DNA from: Hoplostethus atlanticus
Lineage: Eukaryota; Chordata; Actinopteri; Trachichthyiformes; Trachichthyidae
Reading direction: 5' to 3'
DNA length: 64,000 bases
NCBI GenBank assembly: GCA_034670405.1
Contig: JAXDDX010000159.1
Location: forward strand, 558,001 to 622,000
Below the pieces are notes generated by a model that was not told the origin of the DNA, did not search any database, and was given only the letters and a program-made list of their open reading frames with translations. Shown in pieces: positions 47,101 through 63,571 of this stretch. Both the position numbers and the translations under genes were made by a program. Within the stretch, counting starts at the first letter, position 1; the number at the start of each line of letters is the position of its first letter.

Positions 47101-50100
47101 GACCCAATGAAAGCGGTGAATGATGCAGTGGAGGAATCTGAAAACATGCTCAATGCAATATTAAACTTTGCTGCCAACCTTATTGCTCCTGACGAAGATG
47201 AAGGTACGCACATATGCACAGGTTGGACACACACACATTAGGCATACGCACAATAGGTTCTACATGCCATATTGTTAAAAAAATCCAAGATAACATTGTT
47301 TGATGAGTATGTTGGATTTGTTGATGAATAAATCAAAAGAAACACTGCAGAAACAATACTCTGATGTAATTAATTATATGACAGTGTGCTTGCTAACTCA
47401 TTCCCTCTCTCGATTCTGTAGGAAACTTATACGCAGTGAGAAAAAAAGGTATGTATTGGCACAACATTTGGATTAACTTCCTATTGCAATATGGTACGAA
47501 TCCTATTTAGGTTAAGGGGCGCAGGTGGGGTTGGGGTTAACCCCAGCTAATCCCACATTCACTAAGTAACACTAATAGACTTTGCTACAAACCCTCGTCA
47601 TCCAACCTCCACGGGGCGCAGCATAACATGCCAACCCAACTCTAACTTCCAATGCCAGTTCAGAATATCAATTAAATATAACTAACTAACTAAATATATA
47701 CAATTTCCCTTTATGTGCCTCATCTACTGCATTCTCCTATGGTACTGTAAACTACTGTAAACAATCTGCCTCACCTCTGAACACAGCACCAAATCTGGTT
47801 TTAAACTAGCACAAAAAAGTCAAACGTGCATAATCAGTAAATAACATCAGCACAACAGTTTAGTGATGTGTTAGGGAGGTCACATGTGCTGTGCTATGCA
47901 GAGCATTAAAACCTCCTCCCACAAGATGCAACTGTGGGTGCCGTATAGGGAACTGAAGTCACCGTCATCCCTGCCCGGCTGTGGTTCACTCTTGTCTCTT
48001 TTAGTACATTGCAGATTACTTGATAAAAGCAAGCTACGAACCATACGGTTTCCTTTCTGAAATATGTTATATACCGAAGTGATGTTTATTCGGTGAAATT
48101 CAATCAATAAAACGGCGATATGACAAAACAAGACATCACTTAGCTTGCTTACACCCACTAGCTAACGTTACACCATGAAACATTTATAGAGCAGCGATAG
48201 TTAAGGTCTTTGGCTATTGTACACCAAAAAAAGGCTCAATAATTTTAATATAATATAATAATTTTGATACACTCTGTGAAGAGAGGCCATTTCATAGGAA
48301 ATGTATTTCCATAATTGCACTTATAAGTACCCAATCATTTTCCCTCAAAAGTTACAAAAATGTGTATGTTTCCTAATTGCTTATGTATCGGTGGGTGCTG
48401 CAAGATGATTTTCAGCACAATCTATTGCTTTGTTTAGTTGATGTAATATGTATCTATGGAAAATGATGCTAGCCACCTAGCTGCTAGTCAACCAGTGGGC
48501 AGTCTTGGTTAACTTCTGCTTTGACTCCCTATTATCTTCCATTACTGTGTTATCTCTACAAATGCAATTTTATTATACATGTTTTTTATATTGATTGTTA
48601 TAAAAATAAGATTCTGAAATTCTCATCATTGTGCATTGTGATTAAAAACAAAACTGTAACTCAATCAATACTTTTACCAGCTATCCAACTAGGTACGTTA
48701 ACAAACTTATACAAATAATACTGTAGCTGGTTGGATGTTAACTACAGTAAGCTACTATCATGGATATATTTCAGTATGTTAATTAGTAGTAGTTAGCAAT
48801 ATTAACTAAGTTACTATGATGGATACATTTAAGCATTTAATGTTACAGTTAGTTCACTTTTTGTCCACATTTCGTTCCTGGTGCAATGCTTATGGAGAGA
48901 CTACAAAATATGTGCTAGTAATAGATATGATTTAAAATGTAGGTAAGTAAAATACTTCAGTCAAAATGTACAGTAAAAGTAAAATGACTGACCTCAATTA
49001 CAAGTACACACACAAGCTGCTCAAATACAGTAAGTCTAAAAATACAAAAGCAATTTGTCACTTCCACCCTTGGATGTGTCTGGTGGCTGTCTTCTAAATT
49101 TTTGAAGCTTATGGACCAACATTGTGGGATGGAAAATGTCAGTGCATGTCAGTATGATGCCATCTTTATGAGCCTATAGTATACTTGCTGTTTCCACCTG
49201 CTTGATGGAAATCGCTTACTTAAATATATAAATAAGTTGGTAGTAACTAGTATCTGGATTAGGAGCTATGGAAAGACAGATGGATAAATCTAGATGACCA
49301 TGGGGCCAAAGGCTTGACTTGAATGATGACTGACACTGATCTATGAACCATTTGAAACATTCAGGATGGTTGGAAGAGGAAGAGTAAGTGGTAGTGAAGA
49401 TTAAGAAAGCAGAAGGTAATATTTCTCTATAAGTAGTCTAACAGAGTTTAAGTGGAGATGGATAATTACAGATTAGTTTTGTCCCCAGATCCTGTAACTA
49501 CAGACAGCGGTACAACGGCGGTAACAAAGATAGTTTACAGTACCAACACAAGGTAGATCTTGTGGGTGTTCTCATTTTCAATCACTGCATTCTGAAGCAC
49601 TAATGAGTTTGCCTTTTCTTGCAAAAATGTACAATGGCGGTAACAAAGATAGTTTACAGTACCAACAGAAGGTAGATCTTGTGAGTGCACTAACTTTTCA
49701 TGTCAACACTTGCTGCTTAACTATTGGATTACTACCAAACTTGCCTATTTACTGTACCATGTATGTGAATGGGTATTCATGCTGTAGCGTGTTTCATCAC
49801 TTTCAATATTAAATATTATTGTTTTGGTTTGCAATTCTAATTCAAATTCTCTTTCCATATTCTAGGAGAATTTCTACCATCCCGAAGTAAAGGTTTGTAT
49901 CTTTTGTTTGGCATAATCCTATTTCCTAAAGTTTGATAATTTACAGATAGCATGGACAGGGAAACATATCTCTATTCTTGGCTGGAATAATGTGATACCT
50001 GTGATTTTTGGGCAATGAGGTATCCATTGAGGCAGATCAGATCATCAGTCTGTCTCTACATAACTGTGGTTAATTTTCCTTCATGAAGTTGATGTCAGCT

Positions 50101-53100
50101 TTGTGCAAATGCTACTACATCAAGTTATGTAATATAATTTCTGCATGCCATACTGCATACTAGATTGCTAAATAAATGAAAAAACGCCAGATATGGTTGA
50201 TTGATTTGTGACACCACTGCAAACCCTCTATTCTAGATTTAGTGTTTACTTAGTATGATAATACATCCTTAATCCTTAATAAAGACACTTATGGTTCATG
50301 TTACAGTTGTAGGGATGCAAGCCATGAAGAAAACACCAGTGGTTGATGTTGCGGAGGAAGAGGAGGAGGAGGAAAAGGGGGAGGTAGCTGAAGAAGAGGG
50401 GGAGGAGGGACACATAGCGGAGGCTGCTGAGGAAGAGGGGGAGGAAGAAGAGCATAAGGAAGAGGAGGAAGGACTGGAGGAGGAGGAGGAAGAATATTAT
50501 GAAGAGGAAGAAGGACTGGAGGAGGAGGAGGAGGAGGAAGAATATTATGAAGATGAGGAAGAACTGGAGGAAGAGGAGGATGAAGCAGAGTATGATGAAG
50601 AGGAGGAAGGACTGGAGGAAGAGGAGGAGGAAGGATTGGAGGAGGACGAATATTATGAAGAGGAGGAGGAGGAAGGAGAGGAGCAGGAGGAGGCAGAAGA
50701 AGAGGAGGAAGAGGGAAGACTGGAGGAGGAGGAGGAGGAGGAGGAGGAGGTGGAGGAGGAGGCAGAAGAAGAGGAGGAAGAGGGAAGACTGGAGGAGGAG
50801 GTGGAGGAGGAGGCAGAAGAAGATGAGGAAGAGGGAAGACTGGAGGAGGAGGAGGAGGAGGAGGAGGCAGAAGAAGAGGAGGAAGAGGGAAGACTGGAGG
50901 AGGAGGAGGAGGAGGAGGAGGAGGAAGTACCAGCTGAAGCAGAGGAAGACAACATTGATGATGAGGAGGAAAAGGATGATTCTGCAGAAATAGAGGCTGG
51001 AGAAGAGGATGAAGAGGAAGAGCAGCGAGTGGAAGCAGCTGCTGAGGAAGCAGAGGAAGATGAACAGGAGGAAGAGGTAAAGGCAGCTGCTGAGGTGGTG
51101 GCAGGTGATGAAGAGGATGATGAGGATAAAGGCAAGGCAGATGAAGAGGAACCTGCTGCATCTGCCTCTGACGTGGAGGAACATGATGAAAAAGAGGTAG
51201 AGAAAGGAGGCAAGAAGGAAGGGGAAGATACAGGAGTTGACCAAGATGATGATGATGATGATGATGAAGAGAGGGCATCTGCAACTGATGCAGTGGCTGA
51301 AGGAAAAGAGGAGGAAGAAGAAGACGGTGATGAAGATGATGATGAAAAAGAGTTTGCGGAAGAACCTGCTGATGCTGAGGATGTATCACCTGAACCTATT
51401 TCCACTTCTGAGGAAGAGGAGAGAGATGAGGAGGAGGAGTCCCCTGTTTCTTCTAATACCGAGTCTGATGCACCTGTTGACACCAAGGACGATAAGGAAG
51501 ATGATGATGATGATGAGGATAAAGATGATGCCATAGCTATACCTAAAACTGCTGATGAAGATGATGACGAAGATGATGACACTAGTGATGATGCAGTCAC
51601 TGACACCTCAGATGTCAGTGAGTCTACAATTCTTTCCAGTGAAGAGGAGGACCAGGACGAGGACGATGATGAAGATGACAGATTAGCTGAGGATGTTGCA
51701 ACTTCTGACACTGATGAAAACATTGTAAAAGACACCGACGATGACCTGGATCTTGATCTTCCTCCTCTGCCTGCTGATGATGAGGATGACAGTGTTGATG
51801 ACAAAGGTGTCATAACGTCAGATAGTGATGACCTCATCGTGGATCTTCCTCCTTTGCCTGTTGCTCCTGTTGGAGACACTGATGATGATGATGACCTTGA
51901 TGAAGACGTCAAAGCTAGTGTAGACACTGATGATGATGATGATCTTCTGGACAAATCAGACGAGGACACCTCTGTTGCCTCCTCTGACCACTTTGCAGAT
52001 GATGAAGATGGCGAGGAAGATTATACTGATACCGTTGATGACCTTAAAGACGACCATGACTTTTACGGTGACCTTGACAAACCCATCGATGTTGACCTGA
52101 GCTTTGACAGCGCTGACGTCAAAGACGACCACGGCGACAAAGATGAAGACATTGCTCATTACACACCTGATGACTTGGACATCAATGATGACGATGATGA
52201 TGAAGAAGAACTCAAAGTCCATCCTTTTGACAGTGAGGACAGTGGAGTTCTAGGTGACGATGATGATGATGATGATGATGATGATAAAGCTTTCAAAATA
52301 GACGAAGAATCTGAAGGAGAGTCTGTGTTGAGCACTGACTTTTCCTATGACTCAACCGATGACGTTGATGATGATGCTGACACAAGCTCGTTTGAGCTCA
52401 GCTTTGGTCAAGATGACAAAAAGGAGATTACAGAATCATTTGTGGACATCGAAAAATATGACGATGTTTTTAAAGATGAAATCACATCAGAGTCCTTAGC
52501 CAGTGCTACGCCAGATGATGATGATGATGATGATGATGATAACCACTTGCTATCAGGTATCACATCATTGATATATCTTTCTCACTTTCCTTTTGAGTCA
52601 CTTTGCATTATTATTTCAATTGGTTTACACACAGCTAGTGAAGTCTTAAATTAATAATAATAAATAATATGTTATTTTGCGCTCACACATAGAGTGAGTA
52701 TGAAGTCCACATTATGCAATGCTGAGTGTAAAGAAAATATTTGATTTATATTATATATTTATGTGTTTGGCTGATGAACAGGGAAATGTTTTGCCCAGGA
52801 GCTGCCTAAACATACTGGCTATTATACTTACAATATTATCAGACTCATTATTTTTAATTGGTATTAATAATTAAGAATTTATAATTTAATTACTGTACTG
52901 TAATGTCATTATATTCTATTATATGTATACTTGGTAATTATACAATATTAATTATATAGTATATTTCATATATAGTGTATTTAGTATATTGCAATTATTA
53001 TTACTACCTCTATAATAAGAAAAACAAATAATATATATATACTGTATAATAATTCAAATTTGACTCGCTGTGATTCATTTTGTTTTCTTTTGTTGCTAAC

Positions 53101-56100
53101 ATTTTCCCTGCTCCTGTACATTGCCCAAAATGTTTCCCAGCTTATCACAGTCATAACAAAAAGTGTTTTTAAATCATGTTTCTATTTGCAGCTGCAGTAA
53201 CTGCCCACAAGGAGGCAATAAAGACTGAGGCAGACACCCAAGAGGAAGCAGATGATCTCACAGAAGCAGATGTTGATGAGCAGAAGGAGGAGACTGAAAC
53301 AGAGGAGATCTTTGGTGAATGTCACATCTCCATTATAGCTCAACATGTATTCAGAGCAGGTGGACCAGTGAGAATACATATTGTCACATTATTAAGTTGG
53401 TCATACAACAAATAAAAATGAGCTTGTACTTTTTCTAAATGATTTATTAAAACATCTACATCCAGCTACATAGTTTTAGCTAAAAGTAAGGGGCTTTTGT
53501 TTTGTAAATTTAATTTTTTATTATTTTCAGAGCAAATGAGAAAACGATAATAGCACAATGCTTAAAATTCTTAAATACCTACTTACCCCAGTTGTAACAA
53601 CAAAGGAAATAGATGAAACAAATTAAGATTTGTTAAAAACTGTACACAGCTGTAATATATATGTCATACACCATACATAGACATGACACTACCAGGATGC
53701 GTAAAAAAAACAAACACATTTCTTGCATGTTTAATTGCTTTGTTACACTGGCGACACCGACAATGTGTTTGTCCGTGGCTATTTTTGTGCCCCATGAGGA
53801 AAAAAGTAATCACGCTATAAATCAACGCAAATATAGAACCACTTGCTGCTTTCACCAACAGTTACAAGTCAGCCTGCTGCTCCTGTGGAGGATGACAAGG
53901 AAAAAGACGAGGAGCCATTGGCTGAATCTCGGAAAACCAAAGAACATGAAGACATGAAAGATGAGGAGGATGAGGAGGAGGACGATGATGAGGCCGATGA
54001 CAAAGAAAAGGCAACTGTAGATGTAATCAAACCTGTGCCTGAACCTGAGGAGGCAGTGACCGAACCCACAGGTTAGTGAGATGACGATAACCAGAAGATT
54101 GTTCTAACTGTGCAATATTATAGCACAGTATTTTTATCTTAAGCTTACATTTATGCTTTGTGATTTCAGTTTGTCCCTGTATGCATTCTGCTAAGGCTGC
54201 TGAAACTGTGGACAAAAAAGGTTTGATACTGCCATATTGTATTTTATATAGCTTACATGGTTGTAACTCACTCTCATTCACTCTACTTTTGTGTATTTAA
54301 AGGGGCATTAAGTAACCTACTACTTTTATCAACTTCTATTGGCCACCAAGGAATTGCAACGTTGGCAGGTCTCCTGGCACAGCTTACGGTGGCCTGTAAA
54401 TTATATAAATGATAAAGTCACATTTTCACAATGGGGAGGAGAAAGCTAAGTCTAGCATCTAGTGAAGAGTTCATATATCATCATGCAAGCTACTGGAATA
54501 CTGCTTTGTCATTTTAGTTTTGAAAGCCAGAAGTCTCAGCACCTGGCCAAGTAATTATTGAGTCATTATATGATATATAATGGTAATATATATATATATA
54601 TTGTGCATAAAAACCTTACTTGGCCCTTTAATGTTGTTAATGTAAAATTTCCCTGATCTGTGTGTCACAGCTAAAACTGCCAAGATGACAGTAGCCAAAG
54701 AAGGTAGGCCGAAGGCTGCAAAATAGTCGAACTTCGGGCAAGTCGCCCATATAAAAGCTGTTGAGCAACACTTCACTTCAAGCACATTGTGAGGGCCCCA
54801 TAAGCACATCATAATCACTATTCTTAGATTGCTGAAATTGAAATTGACCTGCATTATAATGCATTATGGGTGACACAGTGTCTCAGTGGTTGGTACTGTG
54901 GACTCACAGTCACAGGGTTAGGGATTTGATTCACAGTCTTTTCTGTGTGTAGTTGCATGTTCTCTCTGTTTCCTTCTGGACTTCCCTGTTTCCCTGCCTT
55001 CGACCCAATGCAAGCTGGGATAGGGTCTAGCCCTCTGCCGCCCCGAACAGGAATAAGCACGTACAGAAAATTAATGAATGGATGAAATGCATTAGGATAG
55101 TGATTACAATGCAGTCATCATAGTCTTAAAATGTGCTTATGAATCCTCATAATGCTCACTTCAAGTAAAGTGTTACTAGCCTCTCTGCTTTCACAGCAAG
55201 GCAGTTTACATAGTCGCACAGAAAAATGGCCTCTGAAATAACTTGATGAATGCAGGGCTATGGCTACTCAGGCTACTCAGTCAATATGAGACTATACAAT
55301 GCTGTGCTACACCAGAGATTTAGTAGGTCTGACAGTTTAATCCAGTTAGCACCTGGTGTTCGCAGTAGCACAGATTTCAGAGGGGTGCTTGGTGTTTTAA
55401 TGCTAACTCCAAATTTGCTCGTTACAAATTTGGACTTACATGATGCGTTGCGAGGGCAATTTGTGCAGTTTTTTGAGCCTCCAGTTGCTTGAGCTAAGAG
55501 CGTTTTTCATCTTCACTAAAAAAATGCATGCAAATCAGATTATGGCATAAACAAGCCCTGCGCAAGCAAATAGCCCCCTTAATCTCCGATTAAAAGCAAA
55601 TATTGTGCTTCGGCTATAAAACGAATCCACTAAGGATGGCACCCTTGCGCCCTAAAGCCCAAAGAAACACACAATACAATAAACACTTTCCACTCATCAT
55701 GCATGGTTAGTGAATAGTATGGCTTTCTGATTTGGTTATTTTGGTGACAGAATGCACTCTTTATGGAAACATGTTTGCATTTTATGTTGCCATGCAAGCT
55801 ATGCCCATATTTTTGAGTGTTGCAATGACCTGAAGTTCCACATGTATAAAGATACTTGACTATAACTTGCAATGAATTACCTTCACAGAGCATGGCAAGA
55901 AAGGAAAGGTTAAAGGTAATCGACATACACTAACGATGAACTAACTGACTGGAATTCTGTGGAATGCACTTATCAATTATCCATAACACAAACATGTAAC
56001 CAATCAATTTATTCATAATACATCACCCTGGGAAAAAGGGGTGATGAATTTATTTAGTGTAATTGTAGCTGTAATTTCTACTGTATTAGTATATATTGTA

Positions 56101-59100
56101 ATACTGAAGTGGCTCTAGTATTGATAACAGAAATCTGATTTTTGGTTGGTGCACAGAGATATTAAAATATTTCCACAACAGGCACCTACAGTGAATATAA
56201 AATCTTAAAATCCTAAAGATAATCCATGTGTTTGCATTCAGACACTGGTTTGTTCAAGGTTAGGATGAATGAATAGATAGATTGAATGATGTGTTTGAAG
56301 GCTTGTTGCTTCACTTAAAAATAACACGTTTATTCTCATACCAAAGATGAGAAAGTGAAGATTTCCTAGAATACATTCTGGACTCATATAATTTCAAAAA
56401 AGCTGTTGTGCCTTGAACACGTCCTGCAAGAGCTTTCAAATTAAAATACATCTTTGACATTTGAGTTCTGCAGTAAGTCAATGATCTCATGTTAGCCTGT
56501 CTATGTTTTCAGAAAAAGATGCTCCCAAGAAGGTTTCAGCTGTGACAAGGAGAAAAGGTACTGGGAACGAAAGCTAGTTTTTGACTAGATTGAGCCCCAA
56601 TATGGCCACAACTAAAACTAAAACGATTCCAATGTTGATGCTTTTAAATGCGTTAAGAAATTTTGCAGTGTCCAATCCAGTCTTTAAAAATCAGGGCCGT
56701 CTAATCAATGCCTCTAGAAATAGAAACTGGCTCATTAATTTGTGAGACTATGCTTTAAAGCTAATCATGCCTCTGATGAACAATCATGAGTGAAGTTCCT
56801 TTTATTTATTTACTACCCACTGTTGTTTTTTCTGGTTTAAAGAGCATGAAGCTGTGAAGACGGAGGAGAAGCCAAAAAGGAAAGGTAAAAATGAATGATG
56901 CCGTAGCGTCTTATTTGTCATTGATAAGAACTAAAAAAATAAATTCGGTATTGCTTCTACCTGCGGTGGTCTAATAAATGACAATAAATGTTTATGTTGT
57001 AAGCAGCTCTTCCCAGAATTCTGGGTGTGGAGGAAAGGATCAGGCGGGTCAGGAGAATTCTCAGAGGTACTGTGTACACAGGCTTACATTTGCCTCCATC
57101 GAATTAAAGGTGCAAGGTGTATCATTTTTAAACATCAATATATCGTTGTCAAATTAATTGCGCTACCTTGGTACTGGAATCAAATGAGACCATGGTGGAG
57201 ACGATTGGTAGGCTCTATCTCACCCTAGTGGTATTGTTAGTGTTAATTTCTCCAAATTAAGACCACATTTCCCATAAACCCCATTGCTTCCTGTCCCCCT
57301 CCCCCTCCCTGGCAACTTTGTCTTTACTGAAGAGGATCAACATATTGGAAGTGATTTTTCAATCTTTCTTTCTCTCCTTCCTCATTACATTACATTACAG
57401 GCATTTATCAGACGCCTTTATCCAAAGCGACTTACAATAAGTGCATTCAACATAGGTAGGCAAGAGAACTACTAGTCACACTACTAGTCCTCCATCTGCC
57501 ATTGCCAGAAACTCTGAAAGCTTTAGCTCTGTTAGCGCTGGAAGAACAGCGCCCTCTTCCTTTTTTGTGCCGTAAAGCAATCCAGCAGATTCCCTCCAAA
57601 TCCGACCCGGTGTCACACAGTGTAAAATGCAGTGTAGAGCTTGGTAGAGGCTGCTCGTCTTCTAGTGATCTTGTTTGCTTACAGTTATTGTATTAATGTC
57701 TCAAAAATGTATGTGGTAATGGATTTAACAATGATAGCACCTTTAAAAACACTAGTTCATATTGTAATAATAAACTCTGAAGTTGTAGGACTGTAGCAAA
57801 GAGGAATGAACTTGAGAAGATATAGAAAGCTAATAGATATTTACTATGAGAGAAAACGAATGAATGTTAAATTGTAAAGACAAATTTGAAAATATATGGA
57901 GAAGTTCTATGTATGCAACTGCCAGGCTGTCCTTGTATATAAGAATGTGTTCTAAAGTGAATAGCATGGTTGAATAAAGGCTAAATTACAAGAAAATTAA
58001 ATGAAAGGGGTTCTGTGCTAAGTGCTCTGCAGCTGTAGAATGATCATATGAATAATTACGACAAATTAGGGTCGAAAGATGGTGAATGGACTGTTGATTT
58101 TCTTTATGAATGTGTGCAGATGCAGATCCCCTTTCATTCTTCTACATAATAAACTTTTAGATTAATGGGATCTTCTCCTGTTCCTCTCCTCCCATTCCCA
58201 TTCAAAAGCCAATAAAGAGGAGAAGGCCAAGTCCTCTAAAAAAGGTAAATCTGTTAATCAGACACAAATCACATTCACACTTGCTTAATGATACGATAAT
58301 AGCCAGGTTAAAGTGGACACAAAACCAAGTAAAGGCCATTTTTTCCCTTTTTCCATCTTTAAAGTTGGTCATGACTCTTTAACAGAAACAGACACTGAGA
58401 CACTGAAGCCAACAGAGATCCCAGAATCTGGACAAGAAGGTATAGTATCTATACTTTTAATCATGTTTATTCTGAAGAGTTTCTTCTATTATTTGGATTA
58501 TTTAATACAGTAAAAATACATGGTTTTCCGCATCACCGATCCACATCAGTCCACATCACTGATTTCTTTCAGGGAAAATGGGTTGTGTCACTGAACATGG
58601 GCTGCGCCACAGAAAAATAGTAAAGTCATAGATGCAGAAAATGATCAAAAGTGTTCTGCACGTGTGTATCACTGCTGCTAGATGTCAATCAGGGATGGCC
58701 TTCAGTCCGTCCAAGTCTGGCTTCCAGATGGAATTCCCCAGGGTGCTTTTCATCACCCGTAGCCAATAAGTCAATTCCCGCTTTATTGGCTAATCATAAT
58801 CTATGGGTTAAATACATATTAATAATTCAACTTACTTGAAATTGTTCAAGTAAGTTCTTGAACTGTGCATCTTGATTTATTCACATGGAATTGATTTATT
58901 TTGATTAATTATTATTAAATGAATTATTAAGCTACATTTCTATGATAGTTCTTTCTAATTCTGTTATATTTATTATTTTATTACAACAAGTTAATTATAT
59001 GTAAAGATAATTTATGTTAATCGATTTATTGATCCATATACTTTATTTATTACACAGAGTACAAAGTTTTACACTGAATAGAATGATCTTCCGTAAAAAC

Positions 59101-62100
59101 ATCTACTAATGCATATTGTTGGTTATCTATTGTAGTTGGCCCTTGCCGACCTGCACCGGTCTATTGCCCGTCCCCTCCTGGCTGGTATGGTAAGTAGTGC
59201 AGAACAATTTCCATTAACGAAGAAGTAAATAAAAAACAAATCTGTATTTGAAGAGTAATGTCGTATCAGACATGGGCGCATCATCCTTTAGTATCTGACA
59301 TTATTGTTGTATGCATAATGTCAACCTGTTGAAATGTCAAATTAACCATTTATCTTCCAGTTCATCACATAGTCACAGACAATCCATACCCACCTCCAAC
59401 CATGACAGGTATTTGGCACTATTGTCATATGAAGTGGGGTAAATAATGCTGATATTAACAACATATATGACATGTGCTGCTGTGTTTGGGTTGACCTGTG
59501 AAATGTGTTAAAATATGCCATTATGTGTCCTCTGCTTTTGTGTAGGACTGCACAATGTGGAAAACAAATATGATTGACAGTGACTCATCACCCATTGATG
59601 TATTATGGTCATATGGCAGTAAAAACCTTATCTATTGCACAATTCATATTTAGTTTATTGATTTAATGTAATTTAGAAATGAATATAACAAAATGCCCAT
59701 ATTTTTGCAATATAGATACATCAATTCTAGATATTGCATTCTCTCAAATTACAATATCAATATGGTTATATTGTTCAGCCCTACTTTTGTGTGTGCAAAT
59801 ACTGACTATGTATTGTAATATTCTGAGACAATGTTTATGTTGCCATTCCTTGTACTGTAGAACCTCATTTATCCAAACTTTGAATGAATTTTGTTTCTAA
59901 CAAATATGTGCAATTGTTGAGACTTCCCTCGTTGCTATAATGTAAATCTATCTTTTACTGGCTTTTCTGTTTACGTGCACATTTGATATGTTTAGCATAA
60001 ATTGCCCTGATATTTCTCTGGTTTGAATGGCCTCCATTGTTAAGGGGTTTGGATTAGTGAGGTTCTACTCTGTGGGTTTGTCAGCTTTTTTGTAATTTAC
60101 ACCTTCTTTCACATGTTACAATATTACTCCAATTCAATTTTTACAGTATCACCCCAACTTAAATAAAAGGTTGTATTTTGCTATATTTCGCAAAATACCC
60201 TACTTGTGAATCGATGTTAAAGGAGGTGTAAACTGTCTTGTCACTAAACCTCTTCCTTGACACTTGTCTTGCTCAACTGTACAACGTCATTATTTTTGTT
60301 TGCCTATCAGATCTAGGACAAATGCATATTATTGCAATAAGGCTCCATATTGTATATTGGAAAGTCTCAGAAATGTAAGCACCATGCAGAGAAACTAATA
60401 GGGGAATATCAATATTTGGTACCAATTTAATTATGTATTTAATGTACATTGTTTACAGGACCGTCAGCTCCTGTTCTGACTGCCCACCCCATCCATCCTG
60501 CTGCGCCACCAATGCAGCCCTTCTATCAGCAACCACCACCCCAACCAATGCAGCCGCTCTATCCACAATATCAATATCATCAATATCAGCAGCCAGTGCA
60601 GCCGATGGTACAACCACCACCAGAACCGGCCCAACCCGTGCAGCCGATGGCACAACCACCACCAGAACCGGCCCAACCAGTGCAGCCGATGGTACAACCA
60701 CCACCAGAACCGGCCCAACCAGTCCAGCCAGCTGTCCCAGCTCCCACTCCTTTTGTTCAGCCTGACGTCCCAGCTCCAGCTCCTGAAGCCCAGCCTGGAG
60801 CTCAAACCCAAGGTAAGGCAGATTTGGTTGATGTTTTCACATGGTTGAGACTCCAGTCTGTATTATTTGGTACTGAAGATAAAAATCAACTCAAAACCAG
60901 TCTTATTCTGTTAAGTTGTTTAACATTATCGGGAATATAATATTCATGCATCTGAAGTCATAAAGTAAGAACTTTAAAACTGCACTAAGCATTGTTTTTC
61001 TATAGAAACCCAGCTGTCTAAATCATGAAGTCAGCTGCAACAGAGGAAAGTGTCACATCCCTCCGAATTGAGACATAGATTCGCTTTATTTGAAATTCTG
61101 AAAATTCAGAAAGTCAGTATGGTCACATGTGGGAAATTTTCTCTACACCGGAAATGCCGAAATAAAACTTGAGTAATTAGCATCCAGAGAAAGCTGGACT
61201 TACCAAAGTTACATATTATATGATATTTTTATATGATATTGTTTATACAAAACAAGATGTCCACCAATTGGAAAATGTGACAGTGACTTTTCCCCTCAGA
61301 TATCTAAATTGGAACACATCTGGGTGGATGTTTTTCATGTTAAAAATGCTTTTCACTGATATTTTGATGTATTTTAGTAATTTAAACATTTGAAAAACAA
61401 CCTCAATTTCTGAATGGTTTGGATTAACAATCTTTTACTGTATCATCAAAAGGATCATTCACTTTTGAAGAAATGTATCTGTAGTAAAAAAAAATTGTTT
61501 TCATTACTACTCATTTTCATTAAAGAACCAGAGACTCTTGAGGAAAATCTGAAGGTTGCTACCAAAAAGAAAGGTACAGTGAAATTACATAATAATTAAA
61601 AATAAACAAATACACAAAATGAATTATGTGTAATGAATTGTTAATTATTGCAGTGAACAATAATTAATATTATATTGTAATTTCTAGCTGCAAAGGAGAA
61701 AACAAAAGTTGTGTCTAATACAACAAATACAATGTTTTGAAGAGAGCTGCATGAAACAGATTGATTCAGTGCTTCTTAACTATTCTCACTATTTCAAGTA
61801 GAAAAGCCAACTTAAGTACTTCATGTAGGGTTAGGGTTAGCGTTTACCAATTGTTCTCATTATGCATGCAGTGTTAATTGAATGTGACTGGACCTCACAC
61901 ATGCTGAGCATGTGTTGCACAAATGCATTCATTATGTAAATTAACTCAGCATGACCAATTTTGCCCCCAGAGCCAGGAACAGTTAAGAAGACAACAAAGA
62001 CAACTGGTAATTCATGTTAAATTCATGGTAATTTGGTGATGAAGTGTAATGTTCTCAATGACATACATTCCAATGTAAAAAAGATACCAATTTGACCAGC

Positions 62101-62276
62101 GCGTAGCTGTAGCATCTACATAACAGTTGTACACACTTGAGTAAAATAGACGTAACATAGTTTAACCGTTTTATCCATTCCAGATGCTGCTATTTCCAAA
62201 GACAAGACTAAGGCAAGCACTGAGAAAGGTGAATAATAAACTGTGTAACCACCTTGACTTCATTCATTTTATGCAA

Positions 62277-62307
<31 letters not shown>

Positions 62308-63571
62308 CACACTTTTTTTGTTACAGCACCAGTGGCGACAAAACAGAAAACCAAAACGACTGCAGCTACTAAGAAAGGTAAGGTGTCAGGGGTAGCAGTT
62401 TGTGTAGGACCCAGAATGCAGACCAAGATGACGGAGTAGAAAATAAGCGGTTTTTAATAGTGAAGCTGGTGAAAGGAAGGTGGGGGGTGCAGAGGCTGGG
62501 CTGGATGGAGCTGGGGCAAGCAGGTGAGGCAGGAGCGAGGGAAGCAGGCAGGCTGGTGGGTTTCGGCGAGGAGACACGAGGAATGAGGCGTACAGGGGAT
62601 CTTGGGAGACAAGAAAGACAGTTAGAACAGCCCGGAGGCACACAAGGGACTATAACTCTGACTGTAGGTCTAGAGCGGCCGAGAGCGCGACTACCACGGT
62701 AGTTGGCAGAACAATCTGGTGACGAGTGGTTGGAGAGCCAGGGTATATATGCTGCTGGGCTGATGGCTTGATAGGCGGCAGGTGTGGAGGAAAGGCAGGG
62801 CCGGGAGAGGGAGCCACACCCACGCCACACACACACACACACACAGACAGACAGAGAGACAGACAGGGGAGGTGGAGACACAAGGGAGGTAAAAACACAG
62901 GGAAAACCTGGGGTCGGGGCTGGAGCCGTGACATAAGGGCCATTTTGATAAAGTATAAAGATTATTGAAAGTCACTAAAAACAAATGCCTACAGAGACAG
63001 TAAAAAAAATAGGCTATAATAAGACTGACCATTTAATAAACAGGAAGATGTAGAGTTACTCTAGGTCCAAAAATTCTCTGTTTTGATTTGTTTTGAAGAT
63101 CTTTCATGTCTTTCAGTTTTTTGCAATATTTGTTGTTACAGAGCACCAAAGAGAAACCAAAGAGAAAATCAAAACTGCTGCAGCAACTACGAAAGGTAAT
63201 ACACTAGAGGATTGTGTAAGACAATTTTGCTAGTTCAAAAAAATTCTATGGAAACTGACACCAAGAAACTGCTCCTCCTCCCATGTGACCATACAACTAA
63301 TACTATACATGACACAACAAATTATACAGTGTCTGTAATCATGAATTGTCTATCATAATGTTAGAGCCTGCAACTGCTCAAGAGAAAAGACGAACAGCCT
63401 CTGCAAAGACAGGTAGTTATGTGTAGTGTCAATACTAATGTTCTCATTTGCATAAAGTCAATCACCATTCATCTCAGTGACATGAAAGATGATAAAAAAA
63501 CTAATTGTTTTTGCTTTTCTTAGAACCATCTGGCATCAAAAGCAAAGTAAAGGCATCTGCATCCAAGAAAG
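29137..63571 (+). CDS. trdn: Triadin, spliced, partial (3' end beyond window)
   Basis: Single-pass sarcoplasmic-reticulum protein. The short N-terminus is cytosolic and the long C-terminal part is luminal, where triadin binds the ryanodine receptor and calsequestrin to form the Ca2+-release complex of muscle. The call rests on MTEAVE, TTTTMVIDSRNG and TFSSPLAW followed by the membrane span (residues about 48-68), on FDLMDYK just after it, and on SKISSDPMKAVNDAVEE. All match vertebrate triadin better than the paralogue junctin/ASPH. Twenty-six main-chain coding exons are placed, all joined in phase 1, giving about 1,383 residues so far; alternative terminal exons are listed separately. Later exons encode short Lys/Glu-rich segments like the KEKE motifs that bind calsequestrin. 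Odd features are a 750-residue acidic exon, a Pro/Gln-rich exon, and transposon-filled introns. Exon borders are inferred from frame and splice sites. Confidence 0.92.
29156..30015 (+). other. trdn intron 1, first part
   Basis: No gene. A short frame at 29350-29571 has no recognisable content. Ends at the target duplication GTATAACC of the following hAT element. Confidence 0.5.
30016..32171. mobile_element. hAT-type non-autonomous element in intron 1 (2.16 kb)
   Basis: Ends TAAGGTGACCAGA and TCTGGTCACCCTA are inverted. The 8-bp GTATAACC is perfect on both sides (30008-30015 and 32172-32179). Next to each terminus lie GGGGACATTTCC-like blocks in opposite orientation. The interior holds a GT microsatellite (31218-31242) and a second repeat near 31720-31812, but no transposase. 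Confidence 0.88.
32180..33940 (+). other. trdn intron 1, middle
   Basis: No gene seen. Contains an AC microsatellite (33602-33622) and an ACA triplet run (33907-33930). Confidence 0.5.
33943..34738. mobile_element. Long-inverted-repeat (foldback) element
   Basis: Left arm 34019-34079 and right arm 34629-34699 are inverted copies: GGTAAATGTGTACATTTCCC plus GTTAATGTG and CTAGTCA, and GGCTCTCTCA at the inner edge. Outside both arms further GTAAATGTG(C/T)ACATTT units repeat. The 550-bp centre has no open frame. It fits a MITE or foldback element; ends and target duplication are unclear. Confidence 0.6.
35111..35221. repeat. 43-bp tandem repeat just before exon 2
   Basis: Two full units (35111-35153 and 35154-35196) and a partial third. 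Each contains TGTG(A/G)TTGT-CTGG-CAGCTCC and ends ACAGTAGAA. The array stops about 40 bp before the exon 2 acceptor, close to the branch-point region. Confidence 0.8.
35263..35475 (+). CDS. trdn: trdn exon 2: cytosolic tail and membrane span
   Basis: The acceptor CCCCCTCCTCAG and donor GTAAGG bound 213 nt. They encode residues 7-77: VRSSTTTTMVIDSRNG, a basic/polar stretch (RVSKKHFTDDLYS), TFSSPLAW and the hydrophobic ILVLALVVTWSCVFIIIF, ending FDLMDYKTLS. The Thr run plus VIDS-x-NG and F-S-S-P-x-A-W are triadin signatures. The span fits one SR membrane helix, and the D-L-x-D-Y-K stretch on the luminal side is shared by triadin and junctin. Confidence 0.95.
35760..35947. mobile_element. 188-bp palindromic hAT MITE
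   Basis: Ends CAGTGGTCCTCAAATCTGGG and CCGGATTTGAGGAACTCTG are inverted, with CTCGGGGTCCAGAGT and its complement just inside. CTATAGAG flanks both sides (35752-35759 and 35948-35955), a perfect 8-bp duplication. Lies in intron 2. Confidence 0.9.
36248..37191. mobile_element. hAT remnant in intron 2, right end missing
   Basis: Opens with CTAGGGTGGCCAGTCCGGC, a hAT-type terminus. A frame at 36597-36899 (CKCNCDISCKGRSAGGSSLTS) may derive from a BED-finger-like or transposase segment, but it is too weak to name. No matching right end occurs before the next element. Confidence 0.4.
37195..38654. mobile_element. Second PIF/Harbinger-family element
   Basis: Ends GGGCCTCATTTATAAA and TTTATAAATGAGGCCC are perfect inverted repeats with CAG on both sides (37192-37194 and 38655-38657). 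One frame at about 37527-37600 reads KFAECDIEVLIAEVERRKGV followed by LFGG, the Myb/SANT-like accessory protein motif seen also in the element at 16698. A long GA microsatellite (38083-38141) and a small repeat (37660-37730) sit inside. No transposase is recognised, so the copy is non-autonomous. Confidence 0.82.
38655..39100 (+). mobile_element. tRNA-headed SINE with TTTC tail
   Basis: A box-A-like TGGCGCAGTGCT (38667-38678) and a box-B GGTTCGATTCC (38710-38720) are spaced as in a tRNA-derived pol III promoter. The body carries TGTGGAGTTTGCATGTTCTC, a block common in fish repeats, and the element ends AATAAAGAC plus a (TTTC)n tail at 39083-39098. It starts directly at the target duplication of the Harbinger element. 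Confidence 0.7.
39435..39640 (-). repeat. Related SINE-family fragment, opposite strand
   Basis: TTCATTATCCATACCTGCTTATTC, GGGCTGGAGCCTATCCCAGC and AAGACCTTCTTGCTGTGAGGC match, in reverse, segments of the SINE-type repeat at 38655 and the degraded copy at 54868. Truncated. Confidence 0.55.
39641..41160 (+). other. trdn intron 2, no gene seen
   Basis: AT-rich intronic sequence. A short repeat-like piece at 40385-40460 contains GGCCCCC runs and recurs in inverted form near 40890-40940. Nothing coding. Confidence 0.45.
41162..41290. repeat. 63-bp tandem duplication carrying GTTGCATAGCAAC
   Basis: Two adjacent units share TTTTGTTTGTGTTGCATAGC and AACCAGGATGATGTAAC. Each contains the palindrome GTTGC-ATA-GCAAC (41178-41190 and 41241-41253), which resembles the paired half-sites bound by RFX proteins (X-box). 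Whether it is bound is unknown. Confidence 0.75.
42105..42420 (-). mobile_element. Possible LTR fragment
   Basis: On the minus strand a TATA-like TTTATAAGAG (about 42250) is followed about 70 bp on by AATAAAGC (about 42180), the spacing expected of an LTR U3-R region. Ends and target duplications were not found. Confidence 0.35.
42421..43150 (+). other. trdn intron 2, no gene seen
   Basis: Unique-looking intronic DNA. Nothing supported. Confidence 0.45.
43151..43819 (-). mobile_element. Small Tc1/mariner element with transposase remnant
   Basis: Ends CAGGGGGTGGACAAAAGAAG and, inverted, CAGGGGGTGGCCAAAATGAT, each followed by GAAACACC. Left flank TA, right flank CA. The minus-strand frame 43367-43594 reads VLHPRVQTLFPHDIPIFQDD followed by NVPKHTA, the conserved F-Q-x-D-N-x-P-x-H block with the second catalytic Asp. 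The rest of the transposase is missing or shifted. Confidence 0.75.
44225..45466. mobile_element. hAT-like element with nested second hAT
   Basis: Ends CAAGGGTACAAATT and AAATTTGCACCCTTG are inverted. ACCATGGT flanks both sides (44217-44224 and 45467-45474), a perfect 8-bp duplication. No transposase. A younger element sits inside at 44331-45154. Confidence 0.82.
44331..45154. mobile_element. Inner hAT-like element
   Basis: Ends TAGGGATGGGC and GCCCATCCCAA are inverted. Flanks CCGTTAAG (44323-44330) and CCGCTAAG (45155-45162) differ at one base. Holds a TA microsatellite (44622-44642). No transposase seen. Confidence 0.7.
45561..47077 (+). other. trdn intron 2, last part
   Basis: No gene supported. 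The frame 45706-46038 begins in pyrimidine-rich sequence and shows no domain. Ends at the exon 3 acceptor. Confidence 0.45.
47078..47203 (+). CDS. trdn: trdn exon 3: luminal juxtamembrane segment
   Basis: 126 nt between TTTTCCTCCAG and GTACGC. Encodes GGLSKISSDPMKAVNDAVEE and then a helical stretch ending FAANLIAPDEDE. It matches the segment after the membrane span in vertebrate triadin (x-K-I-x-S-D-P-x-K-x-V-x-D-A-x-E-E). The acceptor reads CAGGAG, so a NAGNAG choice could drop one residue. Confidence 0.92.
47422..47448 (+). CDS. trdn: trdn exon 4 (27 nt)
   Basis: Acceptor TTCTGTAG, donor GTATGT. Encodes GNLYAVRKK in phase 1-1. Its basic end fits triadin. Short, but both splice sites are strong. 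Confidence 0.7.
47449..49865 (+). other. trdn intron 4
   Basis: No transposon ends recognised. Contains a duplicated segment of about 49 bp (49512-49560 and 49632-49680) and a possible 21-nt exon at 49489. Confidence 0.5.
49489..49509 (+). CDS. trdn: Possible 21-nt trdn microexon
   Basis: A good acceptor (TTTTGTCCCCAG) is followed by 21 nt that read DPVTTDS in the required phase 1-1, then a weak donor GTACAA. The sequence is not Lys-rich like its neighbours, and the donor lies just before a local duplication. Could be chance. Confidence 0.3.
49866..49892 (+). CDS. trdn: trdn exon 5 (27 nt)
   Basis: Acceptor TTCCATATTCTAG, donor GTTTGT. Encodes GEFLPSRSK, phase 1-1. Links the juxtamembrane region to the giant acidic exon. 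Confidence 0.65.
50307..52556 (+). CDS. trdn: trdn exon 6: giant acidic exon (750 residues)
   Basis: 2,250 nt in one exon, acceptor CATGTTACAG and donor GTATCA, phase 1-1. After VVGMQAMKKTPVVDVAEEEE the first 220 residues or so are almost pure Glu with repeating units such as YYEEEEGLEEEE and EEEGRLEEEEE. The middle is mixed acidic with Ala/Val. The last 350 residues are Asp-rich, with runs of 8-10 Asp, Ser/Thr-Asp pairs and two DLPPLP motifs, ending DDNHLLS. There are few Lys residues and no Cys was noticed. It would lie in the SR lumen (residues about 138-887) and could bind Ca2+ at low affinity, as calsequestrin and HRC do; that is inference. The open frame agrees exactly with the phase of both flanking exons, which argues against a separate gene. 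Antisense Leu/Pro/Ser-rich frames here are shadows. Confidence 0.8.
50693..50935 (+). repeat. 51-69-bp purine-rich repeat inside exon 6
   Basis: GCAGAAGAAGAGGAGGAAGA followed by GGGAAGACTGGAGG occurs at about 50693, 50762, 50813 (one base different) and 50867. Units are all multiples of three, so length changes keep the frame. The tract belongs to a wider region, 50345-50940, that is almost only purine on this strand. Confidence 0.85.
52557..53191 (+). other. trdn intron 6
   Basis: AT-rich intron with no recognised element. Confidence 0.5.
53192..53314 (+). CDS. trdn: trdn exon 7
   Basis: 123 nt, acceptor TTTCTATTTGCAG, donor GTGAAT. Encodes AAVTAHKEAIKTEADTQEEA followed by an acidic stretch ending TETEEIFG-. 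Mixed Lys/Glu composition. A second in-phase AG six bases downstream (GCTGCAG) would remove two residues. Confidence 0.75.
53315..53861 (+). other. trdn intron 7
   Basis: No gene and no recognised repeat. Confidence 0.45.
53862..54071 (+). CDS. trdn: trdn exon 8
   Basis: 210 nt, acceptor TTTCACCAACAG, donor GTTAGT. Encodes 70 residues: VTSQPAAPVEDDKEKDEEPL, then KTKEHEDMKDEEDEEEDDDE, then KEKATVDVIKPVPEPEEAV. The alternating K/E/D composition is that of the triadin luminal domain. Confidence 0.8.
54170..54220 (+). CDS. trdn: trdn exon 9, with CPC motif
   Basis: 51 nt, acceptor TTGTGATTTCAG, donor GTTTGA. Encodes VCPCMHSAKAAETVDKK. The Cys-Pro-Cys is one of the few luminal cysteine sites in the window. 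Triadin forms luminal disulphides, so these may be redox-active or link chains (inference). Confidence 0.7.
54671..54703 (+). CDS. trdn: trdn exon 10
   Basis: 33 nt, acceptor TGTGTGTCACAG, donor GTAGGC. Encodes AKTAKMTVAKE, phase 1-1. A Lys/Ala-type triadin segment. Confidence 0.72.
54868..55080 (+). repeat. Degraded SINE-family copy in intron 10
   Basis: GGGTGACACAGTGTCTCAGT, GGTTAGGGATTTGATTC (weathered box B), GTAGTTGCATGTTCTCTCTG and a tail near GGAATAAGCACG follow the order of the SINE at 38655. Confidence 0.55.
55081..55888 (+). other. trdn intron 10, remainder
   Basis: No gene supported. A frame at 55250-55492 has no recognisable content. Confidence 0.45.
55889..55915 (+). CDS. trdn: trdn exon 11 (27 nt)
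   Basis: Acceptor TTACCTTCACAG, donor GTAATC. Encodes EHGKKGKVK, phase 1-1. Basic Lys-rich cassette. Confidence 0.72.
56513..56557 (+). CDS. trdn: trdn exon 12
   Basis: 45 nt, acceptor TCTATGTTTTCAG, donor GTACTG. Encodes EKDAPKKVSAVTRRK, phase 1-1. Confidence 0.78.
56843..56884 (+). CDS. trdn: trdn exon 13
   Basis: 42 nt, acceptor TTCTGGTTTAAAG, donor GTAAAA. Encodes EHEAVKTEEKPKRK, a clear KEKE-type segment, phase 1-1. Confidence 0.78.
57007..57066 (+). CDS. trdn: trdn exon 14, Arg-rich (probable)
   Basis: 60 nt after a weak acceptor (GTTGTAAGCAG), donor GTACTG. Encodes ALPRILGVEERIRRVRRILR in phase 1-1. It is Arg/Ile-rich rather than Lys/Glu-rich and could form an amphipathic helix. The frame fit supports it; the poor pyrimidine tract counts against it. 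Confidence 0.5.
57106..57745. mobile_element. AAAGGTGC-family MITE in intron 14
   Basis: Begins TAAAGGTGCAAGG and ends ATAGCACCTTTAAA, an inverted pair. Inside at 57385-57480 is another interspersed motif, ACATTACATTACA then CTTTATCCAAAGCGACTTAC, very common in fish. The left part matches the repeat at 44129, which shows the family is dispersed. Confidence 0.65.
57746..58208 (+). other. trdn intron 14, remainder
   Basis: No gene or element recognised. Confidence 0.45.
58209..58244 (+). CDS. trdn: trdn exon 15
   Basis: 36 nt, acceptor after a CT-rich tract ending TTCAAAAG, donor GTAAAT. Encodes ANKEEKAKSSKK, phase 1-1. Confidence 0.75.
58365..58439 (+). CDS. trdn: trdn exon 16
   Basis: 75 nt, acceptor TTTTTCCATCTTTAAAG, donor GTATAG. 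Encodes VGHDSLTETDTETLKPTEIP then ESGQE. Thr/Glu-rich and acidic, phase 1-1. Only 120 bp from exon 15. Confidence 0.75.
58440..59135 (+). other. trdn intron 16
   Basis: No gene. Holds one candidate alternative terminal exon at 58573 (see findings) and AT-rich sequence. Confidence 0.45.
59136..59189 (+). CDS. trdn: trdn exon 17, Cys/Pro-rich
   Basis: 54 nt, acceptor TTATCTATTGTAG, strong donor GTAAGT. Encodes VGPCRPAPVYCPSPPGWY. Two cysteines and several prolines and aromatics break the KEKE pattern and begin a Pro-rich block of three exons (17-19). Confidence 0.75.
59361..59408 (+). CDS. trdn: trdn exon 18
   Basis: 48 nt, acceptor TTTATCTTCCAG, donor GTATTT. Encodes VHHIVTDNPYPPPTMT, phase 1-1. 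Continues the Pro/aromatic block. Confidence 0.72.
59409..60458 (+). other. trdn intron 18
   Basis: AT-rich intron. The frame 59679-59900 is not recognisable. Confidence 0.45.
60459..60812 (+). CDS. trdn: trdn exon 19: Pro/Gln-rich exon
   Basis: 354 nt, acceptor ACATTGTTTACAG, donor GTAAGG, phase 1-1. Encodes 118 residues starting GPSAPVLTAHPIHPAAPP, then Tyr/Gln-rich YPQYQYHQYQQPVQPM, then three 14-residue repeats of the type PMVQPPPEPAQPVQ, and ending QPGAQTQ. Such Pro/Gln/Tyr sequence is disordered and sticky. I know of no equivalent of this size in mammalian triadin, but I cannot search for it. Confidence 0.78.
60602..60727 (+). repeat. 42-bp minisatellite in exon 19 (three copies)
   Basis: Units start at CCGATGG (60602, 60644, 60686) and are nearly identical, so they arose recently. 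Forty-two is a multiple of three, so copy number can vary without breaking the protein. Confidence 0.9.
61006..61028 (+). CDS. trdn: Candidate alternative terminal exon of trdn
   Basis: A strong acceptor (TTGTTTTTCTATAG) leads in phase 1 to ETQLSKS and a TGA stop. It follows exon 19 by 193 bp, and AATAAA lies 133 bp after the stop. Usage would give a shorter triadin ending just after the Pro/Gln block. Triadin is known for isoforms with different C-termini. Confidence 0.5.
61161..61166 (+). other. Candidate poly(A) signal AATAAA
   Basis: Canonical hexamer downstream of the stop at 61026-61028. It would end the short isoform proposed there. Confidence 0.4.
61526..61573 (+). CDS. trdn: trdn exon 20
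   Basis: 48 nt, acceptor TTTTCATTAAAG, donor GTACAG. Encodes EPETLEENLKVATKKK, phase 1-1. Confidence 0.75.
61688..61740 (+). CDS. trdn: Candidate alternative terminal exon of trdn (second)
   Basis: Acceptor AATTTCTAG. The phase-1 reading gives AKEKTKVVSNTTNTMF and then TGA. The start is KEKE-like, so it looks like a cassette exon that reads into a stop. No AATAAA was seen before the next exon, which weakens it. Confidence 0.4.
61971..62006 (+). CDS. trdn: trdn exon 21
   Basis: 36 nt, acceptor TTTTGCCCCCAG, donor GTAATT. Encodes EPGTVKKTTKTT, phase 1-1. Confidence 0.75.
62184..62228 (+). CDS. trdn: trdn exon 22
   Basis: 45 nt, acceptor TTTATCCATTCCAG, donor GTGAAT. Encodes DAAISKDKTKASTEK, phase 1-1. 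Confidence 0.75.
62327..62377 (+). CDS. trdn: trdn exon 23
   Basis: 51 nt, acceptor CTTTTTTTGTTACAG, donor GTAAGG. Encodes APVATKQKTKTTAATKK. The donor's TAAGG is also the left target duplication of the solo LTR that follows. Confidence 0.78.
62384..62933 (-). mobile_element. Solo LTR (550 bp) abutting the exon 23 donor
   Basis: On this strand it runs TGTCAGGGGTAGC to GGAGCCGTGACA, with TAAGG on both sides (62379-62383 and 62934-62938). Read on the minus strand it has a TATA-like TATATA (62744-62749) and an ATTAAA near 62453, giving the usual U3-R order. GC-rich compared with the intron; contains a CA/CAGA microsatellite (62828-62860). No internal region is attached. Confidence 0.9.
63142..63195 (+). 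CDS. trdn: trdn exon 24
   Basis: 54 nt, acceptor TTTGTTGTTACAG, donor GTAATA. Encodes EHQRETKEKIKTAAATTK, phase 1-1. Confidence 0.77.
63365..63412 (+). CDS. trdn: trdn exon 25
   Basis: 48 nt, acceptor ATAATGTTAG, donor GTAGTT. Encodes EPATAQEKRRTASAKT, phase 1-1. The acceptor has a weak pyrimidine tract. Confidence 0.68.
63524..63571 (+). CDS. trdn: trdn exon 26 (last in window)
   Basis: 48 nt, acceptor TTTTGCTTTTCTTAG, donor GTAAAA. Encodes EPSGIKSKVKASASKK, phase 1-1. The intact donor shows that the gene continues beyond the right edge. Confidence 0.78.

What the first reader, a model, noticed from the sequence alone, without database searches (positions are those of the whole stretch)
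50307..52556. A 750-residue acidic domain in one exon of triadin
The exon is open throughout, has canonical splice signals, and matches the phase of both neighbours exactly. It would add a very large Glu/Asp polymer to the SR lumen of a protein whose known luminal tail in mammals is mostly basic and binds acidic calsequestrin. A built-in Ca2+ buffer, or self-interaction between acidic and KEKE parts, are possible consequences. Function is inference; the open frame and phase fit are seen.
Basis: partly seen in the sequence, partly recalled or inferred. Interest (0 to 1): 0.85.

Follow-up and report, generated by a model that had tools for sequence, protein, structure and literature searches.

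The report
Giant acidic exon in fish triadin
In this fish, the gene for the muscle calcium-store protein triadin contains one huge exon-like block for 750 amino acids, over half of them acidic, which may let triadin hold calcium beside the release channel; whether muscle really uses it has not been shown.

Summary
In detail: window 50307-52556 is exactly 750 open codons, flanked by AG/GT, phase 1-1, encoding 399 Asp/Glu against 41 Lys/Arg. It lies inside a triadin gene: transmembrane exon at 35263-35475, 22 other modelled phase 1-1 exons in the window, C-terminal exon about 24 kb beyond.

Repetitiveness alone does not explain the open frame. The Asp-rich part has no stop where shuffles average 35.5, and changes in the Glu repeat favour silent positions, unlike similar GAG tracts of this genome. 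As protein, the Asp half found only itself in the 633-Mb genome.

Splice sites are weak and phase fit alone proves little. Cassette use, an internal intron or a read-through ending cannot be excluded without cDNA. A second triadin-like locus shows only a short acidic stretch there. Four calsequestrin loci remain; one ends in 102 Asp codons.

Best reading: a disordered, low-affinity Ca2+-binding domain in triadin, comparable in function to the acidic parts of sarcalumenin or junctate. Function, splicing and origin are inferred. New variant of a known kind.

The parts
35263..35475 (+). triadin transmembrane exon (about 71 codons, ends in phase 1)
   Evidence: tblastn of recalled human TRDN: 54% over 69 aa, E 4.9e-19; boundaries; PF05279 25.4 bits
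47078..47203 (+). membrane-proximal exon, ends DEDE
   Evidence: tblastn 30%, E 2e-4; phase 1-1
47422..47448 (+). 27-nt exon, phase 1-1
49866..49892 (+). 27-nt exon before the acidic block, phase 1-1
50307..52556 (+). acidic block: 750 codons, phase 1-1, 399 D+E, net -358
50307..50941 (+). Glu-rich part of the block (first 212 codons), imperfect GAG/GAA repeats
50942..51400 (+). mixed Glu/Asp part (153 codons)
51401..52556 (+). Asp-rich part (385 codons); as protein only self-match in the genome for 51404-52555
51105..51998 (+). possible in-frame internal intron (298 codons); its donor and acceptor outscore the outer ones; phase by my arithmetic from the positions
52557..52654 (+). possible read-through ending: 32 residues then TAA; AATAAA at 52659
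53192..53314 (+). next exon, also acidic (net -13), phase 1-1
53862..54071 (+). second exon after, also acidic (net -21), phase 1-1
54170..58244 (+). six short, mostly Lys-rich (KEKE-like) exons (g-l), phase 1-1
58365..63571 (+). eleven further modelled triadin exons (m-x), phase 1-1; the gene runs on past the window

Best explanation
The block is a coding exon of triadin, possibly a cassette because it is symmetrical, that inserts a long disordered acidic domain into the SR lumen after the membrane-proximal segment and before the Lys-rich exons. It most likely works as a low-affinity, high-capacity Ca2+-binding polyelectrolyte tethered to the junctional membrane beside the ryanodine receptor, so that triadin itself holds Ca2+ where calsequestrin otherwise supplies it. 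SHOWN: open frame, phase, place in a triadin gene, composition, bias of changes to silent positions. INFERRED: splicing into mRNA, luminal location (from triadin topology), disorder, Ca2+ binding, physiological effect, and origin by repeat growth where short acidic stretches are already encoded.
For: Triadin gene. Coding: 0 stops in 750 codons against a shuffle mean of 52.8 and 0 in the 385-codon Asp part against 35.5; in 150 Glu-part codons GAA:AAR:GGR 32:0:8 against 48:44:144 in six GAG tracts of the genome, Fisher p 5.8e-8 and 9.7e-11. Best acceptor and donor at the frame's ends are in phase. Acidic surroundings: exons at 53192 and 53862 are net -13 and -21; short acidic stretch in the second triadin-like locus. 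GARGAR hexamers 15.9 per 100 nt in the Glu part against 0.37 in the window, which could act as splicing enhancers (recalled). Precedents: junctate, HRC, sarcalumenin with its splice-dependent Ca2+-binding insert (PMC10000884, passages).
Against: No transcript or protein evidence. Weak splice sites. Internal sites outscore the outer ones. The control tracts are less GAN-rich than the block (48-67 against 115 of 150 codons) and only presumed non-coding (5 of 6 have a stop inside the 150 codons; L004 has none). Over the whole 212-codon Glu part the contrast is milder: GAA 42, AAR 4, GGR 14; p 3.1e-6 for GAA:AAR. The Asp part also holds non-silent neighbours of GAY (GAR 42, GTY 18, GCY 14). No relatives were available to test conservation.
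Confidence: 0.6

Rival explanations
1. Used, but in another form: an alternative terminal exon (reading through the weak donor to TAA at 52652, AATAAA at 52659), giving a short triadin with an acidic tail and no KEKE region; or a block shortened by an internal in-frame intron 51105-51998.
For: Weak outer donor; 32-codon read-through then stop and AATAAA; internal donor 3.7 and acceptor 4.4 against outer 0.2 and 1.6. Mammalian triadin isoforms differ in their luminal C-terminal segment (PMC9026860, passages).
Against: AATAAA is frequent (85 on the + strand of the window), so one near a stop is not striking. The would-be internal intron is itself open for 298 codons in the acidic frame.
Confidence: 0.2
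2. Intramolecular Ca2+-dependent clamp: the acidic domain competes with the calsequestrin tail and the acidic luminal loop of the ryanodine receptor for triadin's own Lys-rich segments; luminal Ca2+ neutralises it and frees them, so triadin senses store filling.
For: In mammals the KEKE region is reported to bind CSQ2, RyR1 and HRC (PMC3427183 and PMC6171002, passages); the block lies between membrane and Lys-rich exons.
Against: Charge is far too unequal for full neutralisation: -358 against at most +5 per Lys-rich exon. No binding data.
Confidence: 0.15
3. An intronic GAN repeat tract that is open by chance of composition and is not, or hardly ever, spliced in.
For: Glu part matches many GAG tracts of the genome (53 matches in all, a lower bound); weak splice sites.
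Against: Stop counts and silent-position bias; the Asp part is not a simple repeat and, as protein, has no other match.
Confidence: 0.1
4. An independent gene lying in a triadin intron.
For: In-frame ATGs at 50291 and 50315, and a stop plus AATAAA beyond the donor.
Against: Same strand and the phase of the host gene; best sites at both ends are in phase; no Pfam family at E up to 1. No promoter analysis was made.
Confidence: 0.03

Closest known systems
Triadin (TRDN; mammalian Trisk 95/51/32)
   Same: Transmembrane exon, PF05279 match, membrane-proximal exon, many short Lys-rich phase 1-1 exons, C-terminal exon.
   Different: A 750-codon acidic block. The recalled human protein has only a short acidic stretch at the corresponding place (recalled; query).
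Sarcalumenin (long form against 53-kDa splice variant)
   Same: SR luminal protein in which splicing adds or removes a Ca2+-binding region (PMC10000884, passages).
   Different: Unrelated gene; luminal protein of the longitudinal SR; no sequence comparison made here.
Junctate (ASPH gene)
   Same: SR membrane protein of the same Pfam N-terminal family with a negative luminal Ca2+-binding domain, about 21 mol Ca2+/mol, Kd 0.217 mM (PMC10000884, passages; family membership of junctate recalled).
   Different: Far smaller (33 kDa protein); different gene; sequences not compared here.
HRC and calsequestrin acidic tails
   Same: Acidic low-affinity, high-capacity Ca2+ binding in the SR (PMC6171002, PMC10000884, passages); calsequestrin tails in this genome are Asp-rich.
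   Different: Separate luminal proteins; HRC has His-rich repeats and a Cys cluster, the block has 9 His and 0 Cys.
Aspolin (Asp-rich fish muscle protein)
   Same: Asp-rich protein of fish muscle (recalled).
   Different: Recalled only; 0 papers in the library hold the word; no comparison possible.

Membership tests
Triadin | single transmembrane segment of the triadin/junctin/ASPH type | tested here: met
   54% over 69 aa to recalled human TRDN, E 4.9e-19; PF05279 25.4 bits, cut-off 23
Triadin | luminal region of Lys-rich (KEKE-like) exons | tested here: met
   short Lys-rich phase 1-1 exons from 54170 on; picked by eye; the formal KEKE definition was not applied
Triadin | conserved C-terminal exon | tested here: inconclusive
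   48% over 25 aa, E 0.07, right strand and order, C159:646012-646086
Triadin | acidic block present in triadin mRNA | not testable with these tools
   no transcripts held
Low-affinity SR Ca2+-buffer domain (works like) | long, strongly acidic stretch | tested here: met
   399 of 750 D/E
Low-affinity SR Ca2+-buffer domain (works like) | measured high-capacity Ca2+ binding | not testable with these tools
   needs expressed protein
HRC | His-rich repeats and Cys cluster | tested here: not met
   9 His and 0 Cys in the block; the HRC family search PF10529 did not complete

The most novel reading that the evidence does not exclude
In this fish the acidic charge of the junctional SR has been raised in two interacting partners: one triadin copy gained a 750-residue membrane-tethered Ca2+-binding domain while a calsequestrin gained a tail of 102 consecutive Asp. 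Part of the store's Ca2+ buffer would then be wired to the release-channel complex, and triadin would be buffer and luminal Ca2+ sensor, not only an anchor for calsequestrin.
Probability: 0.25. Interest if true: 0.75.

Novelty: new variant of a known kind. Interest (0 to 1): 0.55.

Why it matters
Triadin is usually described as a link between calsequestrin and the ryanodine receptor. A triadin with its own very large acidic domain would separate anchoring the buffer from being the buffer. Because the block is symmetrical in phase, it could be removed without disturbing the frame, which would test how Ca2+ held at the channel mouth shapes release.

Tried and rejected
Dispersed repeat: the Glu half hits many GAG tracts (53 matches including itself; only 40 of 324 candidates were scored). 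As protein the Asp half (384 aa) matched only itself at E <= 0.001, 5 of 5 candidates scored; as DNA a 31-nt GAT run of it matched one other place. Rejected for the Asp half.

Compensation for lost calsequestrin: PF01216 matches fall in four loci (32 matches). Rejected.

HRC exon capture: no His-rich repeats, no Cys. Not supported; the PF10529 search did not complete.

Homology of the block to human triadin: tblastn with low-complexity filter and composition correction off gave alignments of about 18-20% identity with E down to 7.5e-18 between the block and recalled human KEKE sequence. Put down to shared composition, not counted.

Aspolin (recalled): 0 papers hold the word.

Comparison with other fish: the tool states that this genome has no relatives held. 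No transcripts held. Species not identified.

Antisense and other-frame ORFs over the block (369, 364 and 455 aa between stops on the minus strand): by-products of the repeats.

Second triadin-like locus (C33, 60 kb read): my exon scan found no KEKE exon; its thresholds would also miss several of the window's own exons, so it says little. C76 stretches (L028-L030) were fetched and not studied further.

No structure prediction was made: a disordered acidic chain was not expected to give a useful model.

Full report
WHAT IS THERE. Window 50307-52556 is a 2250-nt block open in one frame, with AG before and GT after, entered and left in phase 1. It encodes 750 residues: 229 Glu, 170 Asp, 33 Lys, 8 Arg, net -358, pI 4.05, about 85 kDa, no Cys. 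The first 212 codons are Glu-rich with imperfect repeats (EGRLEE four times, EGLEE four times, EYY three times). The next 153 are mixed. The last 385 are Asp-rich (133 D, 42 E) and hold Ser, Thr, Val, Leu, Phe and Pro, with DLPPLP twice.

IT IS IN A TRIADIN GENE. I aligned a recalled human TRDN sequence by tblastn to the window and six 10-kb neighbouring stretches. It finds the transmembrane exon at 35268-35474 (54% over 69 aa, E 4.9e-19), the membrane-proximal exon at 47065-47202 (30%, E 2e-4) and the C-terminal exon at C159:646012-646086 (48% over 25 aa, E 0.07: weak alone, but in the right place, and read as an exon ending in a stop). The same run aligned the acidic block with KEKE sequence at about 18-20% identity and low E-values; filters were off, and I count that as composition. 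The transmembrane stretch passes Pfam's cut-off for PF05279 (25.4 against 23 bits); the 750 residues match no Pfam family at E up to 1. I modelled 23 exons from 47078 to 63571; all 23 are multiples of three and the joined frame has no stop. They were chosen by eye for that phase, so the count shows consistency and is not an independent test. Further candidate exons lie past the window.

IS THE BLOCK CODING? Stop-free frames are cheap in GAN repeats. Against 500 dinucleotide shuffles each, the whole block has 0 stops (mean 52.8, minimum 34), the Asp part 0 (mean 35.5, minimum 21), the Glu part 0 (mean 8.6, minimum 2). In the Glu part two reverse frames are also stop-free. A sharper test is where changes fall within the repeat. 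In the 150 most GAN-rich codons of the Glu part GAA (silent change from GAG) occurs 32 times, AAR 0, GGR 8. In six GAG tracts of the same genome (L002-L007, better strand of each, own best frame) the sums are 48, 44 and 144; Fisher p 5.8e-8 for GAA:AAR and 9.7e-11 for GAA:GGR. A seventh tract, L008, was set aside as an open acidic frame; with it p is 4.6e-6 and 8.9e-10. Over all 212 Glu-part codons the counts are 42, 4 and 14, with p 3.1e-6 for GAA:AAR against the six. Caveats: the controls are less GAN-rich (48-67 against 115 of 150) and only presumed non-coding (5 of 6 have stops inside the 150 codons). In the Asp part GAC (51) far exceeds AAY (4) and GGY (6), but GAR (42), GTY (18) and GCY (14) are common, so not every non-silent neighbour is rare. 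The reading 'selected as protein' assumes that the tract grew from a repeat.

SPLICING. The acceptor (top 5.9% of AGs) and donor (top 11.2% of GTs) are weak; of the other 22 modelled exons 5 have a weaker acceptor and 1 a weaker donor. In the stretches examined around the ends of the frame they are the best, and in phase. Other phase-compatible AG and GT exist there, so phase fit alone proves little. The Glu part has 15.9 GARGAR hexamers per 100 nt against 0.37 in the window; purine repeats of that kind are known as exonic splicing enhancers (recalled) and could help define a large exon with weak ends. Left open: an in-frame internal intron 51105-51998 whose sites outscore the outer ones, and read-through for 32 codons to TAA at 52652-52654 with AATAAA at 52659, one of 85 on that strand.

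ORIGIN. As protein the Asp half matches only itself in the 633-Mb genome. A second triadin-like locus on C33 (49% identical transmembrane exon; PF05279 29.5 bits) has a membrane-proximal exon (36%, E 0.004) followed by an acidic stretch of about 42 codons ending in a stop and by a (GAT)14 run; no long acidic block appeared in the 60 kb read. Its exon structure is unclear, and my scan found no KEKE exon. In the window gene the two exons after the block are also acidic (net -13, -21). The simplest history is that triadin had short acidic stretches here and one copy expanded. That is inference from one genome.

CONTEXT. Calsequestrin matches fall in four loci. One (C34) ends in 102 consecutive Asp codons, 64 GAT and 38 GAC, then TAA. 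C230 has a long, almost pure acidic tail, C19 a short mixed one, C256 an acidic tract split between two frames in this assembly. So acidic tracts are long elsewhere in this fish's SR genes too, and the block does not stand in for missing calsequestrin. Whether these tails are unusual among fish was not tested.

HOW IT MOST LIKELY WORKS. Triadin has one transmembrane segment and a luminal C-terminal domain (PMC8471218, passages), which would put the block in the SR lumen. Low-affinity Ca2+ buffers there include junctate (about 21 mol/mol, Kd 0.217 mM), sarcalumenin (0.3-0.6 mM) and HRC (1.9 mM) (PMC10000884, passages); sarcalumenin is the precedent for a Ca2+-binding insert controlled by splicing. 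With 399 carboxylates the domain might hold on the order of 100 Ca2+ (my estimate at 2-4 carboxylates per ion). The KEKE region binds calsequestrin-2, RyR and HRC in mammals (PMC3427183, PMC6171002, passages), so an acidic neighbour might compete for it when Ca2+ is low; but the other modelled exons sum to net -18 against -358, so neutralisation within the chain cannot be the whole story. Seven S-x-E motifs are possible Fam20C sites; mammalian triadin was reported as phosphorylated by Fam20C (PMC6298778, passages).

NOVELTY. I saw no account of a large acidic triadin exon in the listings, nor in the passages read of the zebrafish triadin paper (PMC8471218). The library is open-access only. Fish triadin gene models in sequence databases could not be consulted and may already show it. 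I file it as a new variant of a known kind: triadin by descent, an acidic luminal Ca2+-buffer domain by likely function.

Noticed in passing
L040:419-724 (C34:3008419-3008724): A calsequestrin locus ends in 102 consecutive Asp codons (64 GAT, 38 GAC, no other codon), then TAA.
   Followed up: partly
L037 (C230), L038 (C19), L039 (C256): The other three calsequestrin tails: long and almost pure acidic (C230), short and mixed (C19), acidic tract split between two frames, real or an assembly error (C256).
   Followed up: partly
L018 (C33:1012880-1013080) and L023:5664-6087: Second triadin-like locus with a transmembrane exon, a membrane-proximal exon and a short acidic stretch ending in a stop; possibly a duplicate triadin with a short lumen part.
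   Followed up: partly
window 60459-60812: Triadin exon of 118 codons rich in Pro/Gln/Val/Met repeats (PVQPMVQPPPEPAQ), unlike the Lys-rich exons.
   Followed up: no
L008 (C267): Another long acidic/Gly-rich open frame (252 codons, EEGEEEEGGDEE-like units), gene unknown.
   Followed up: no
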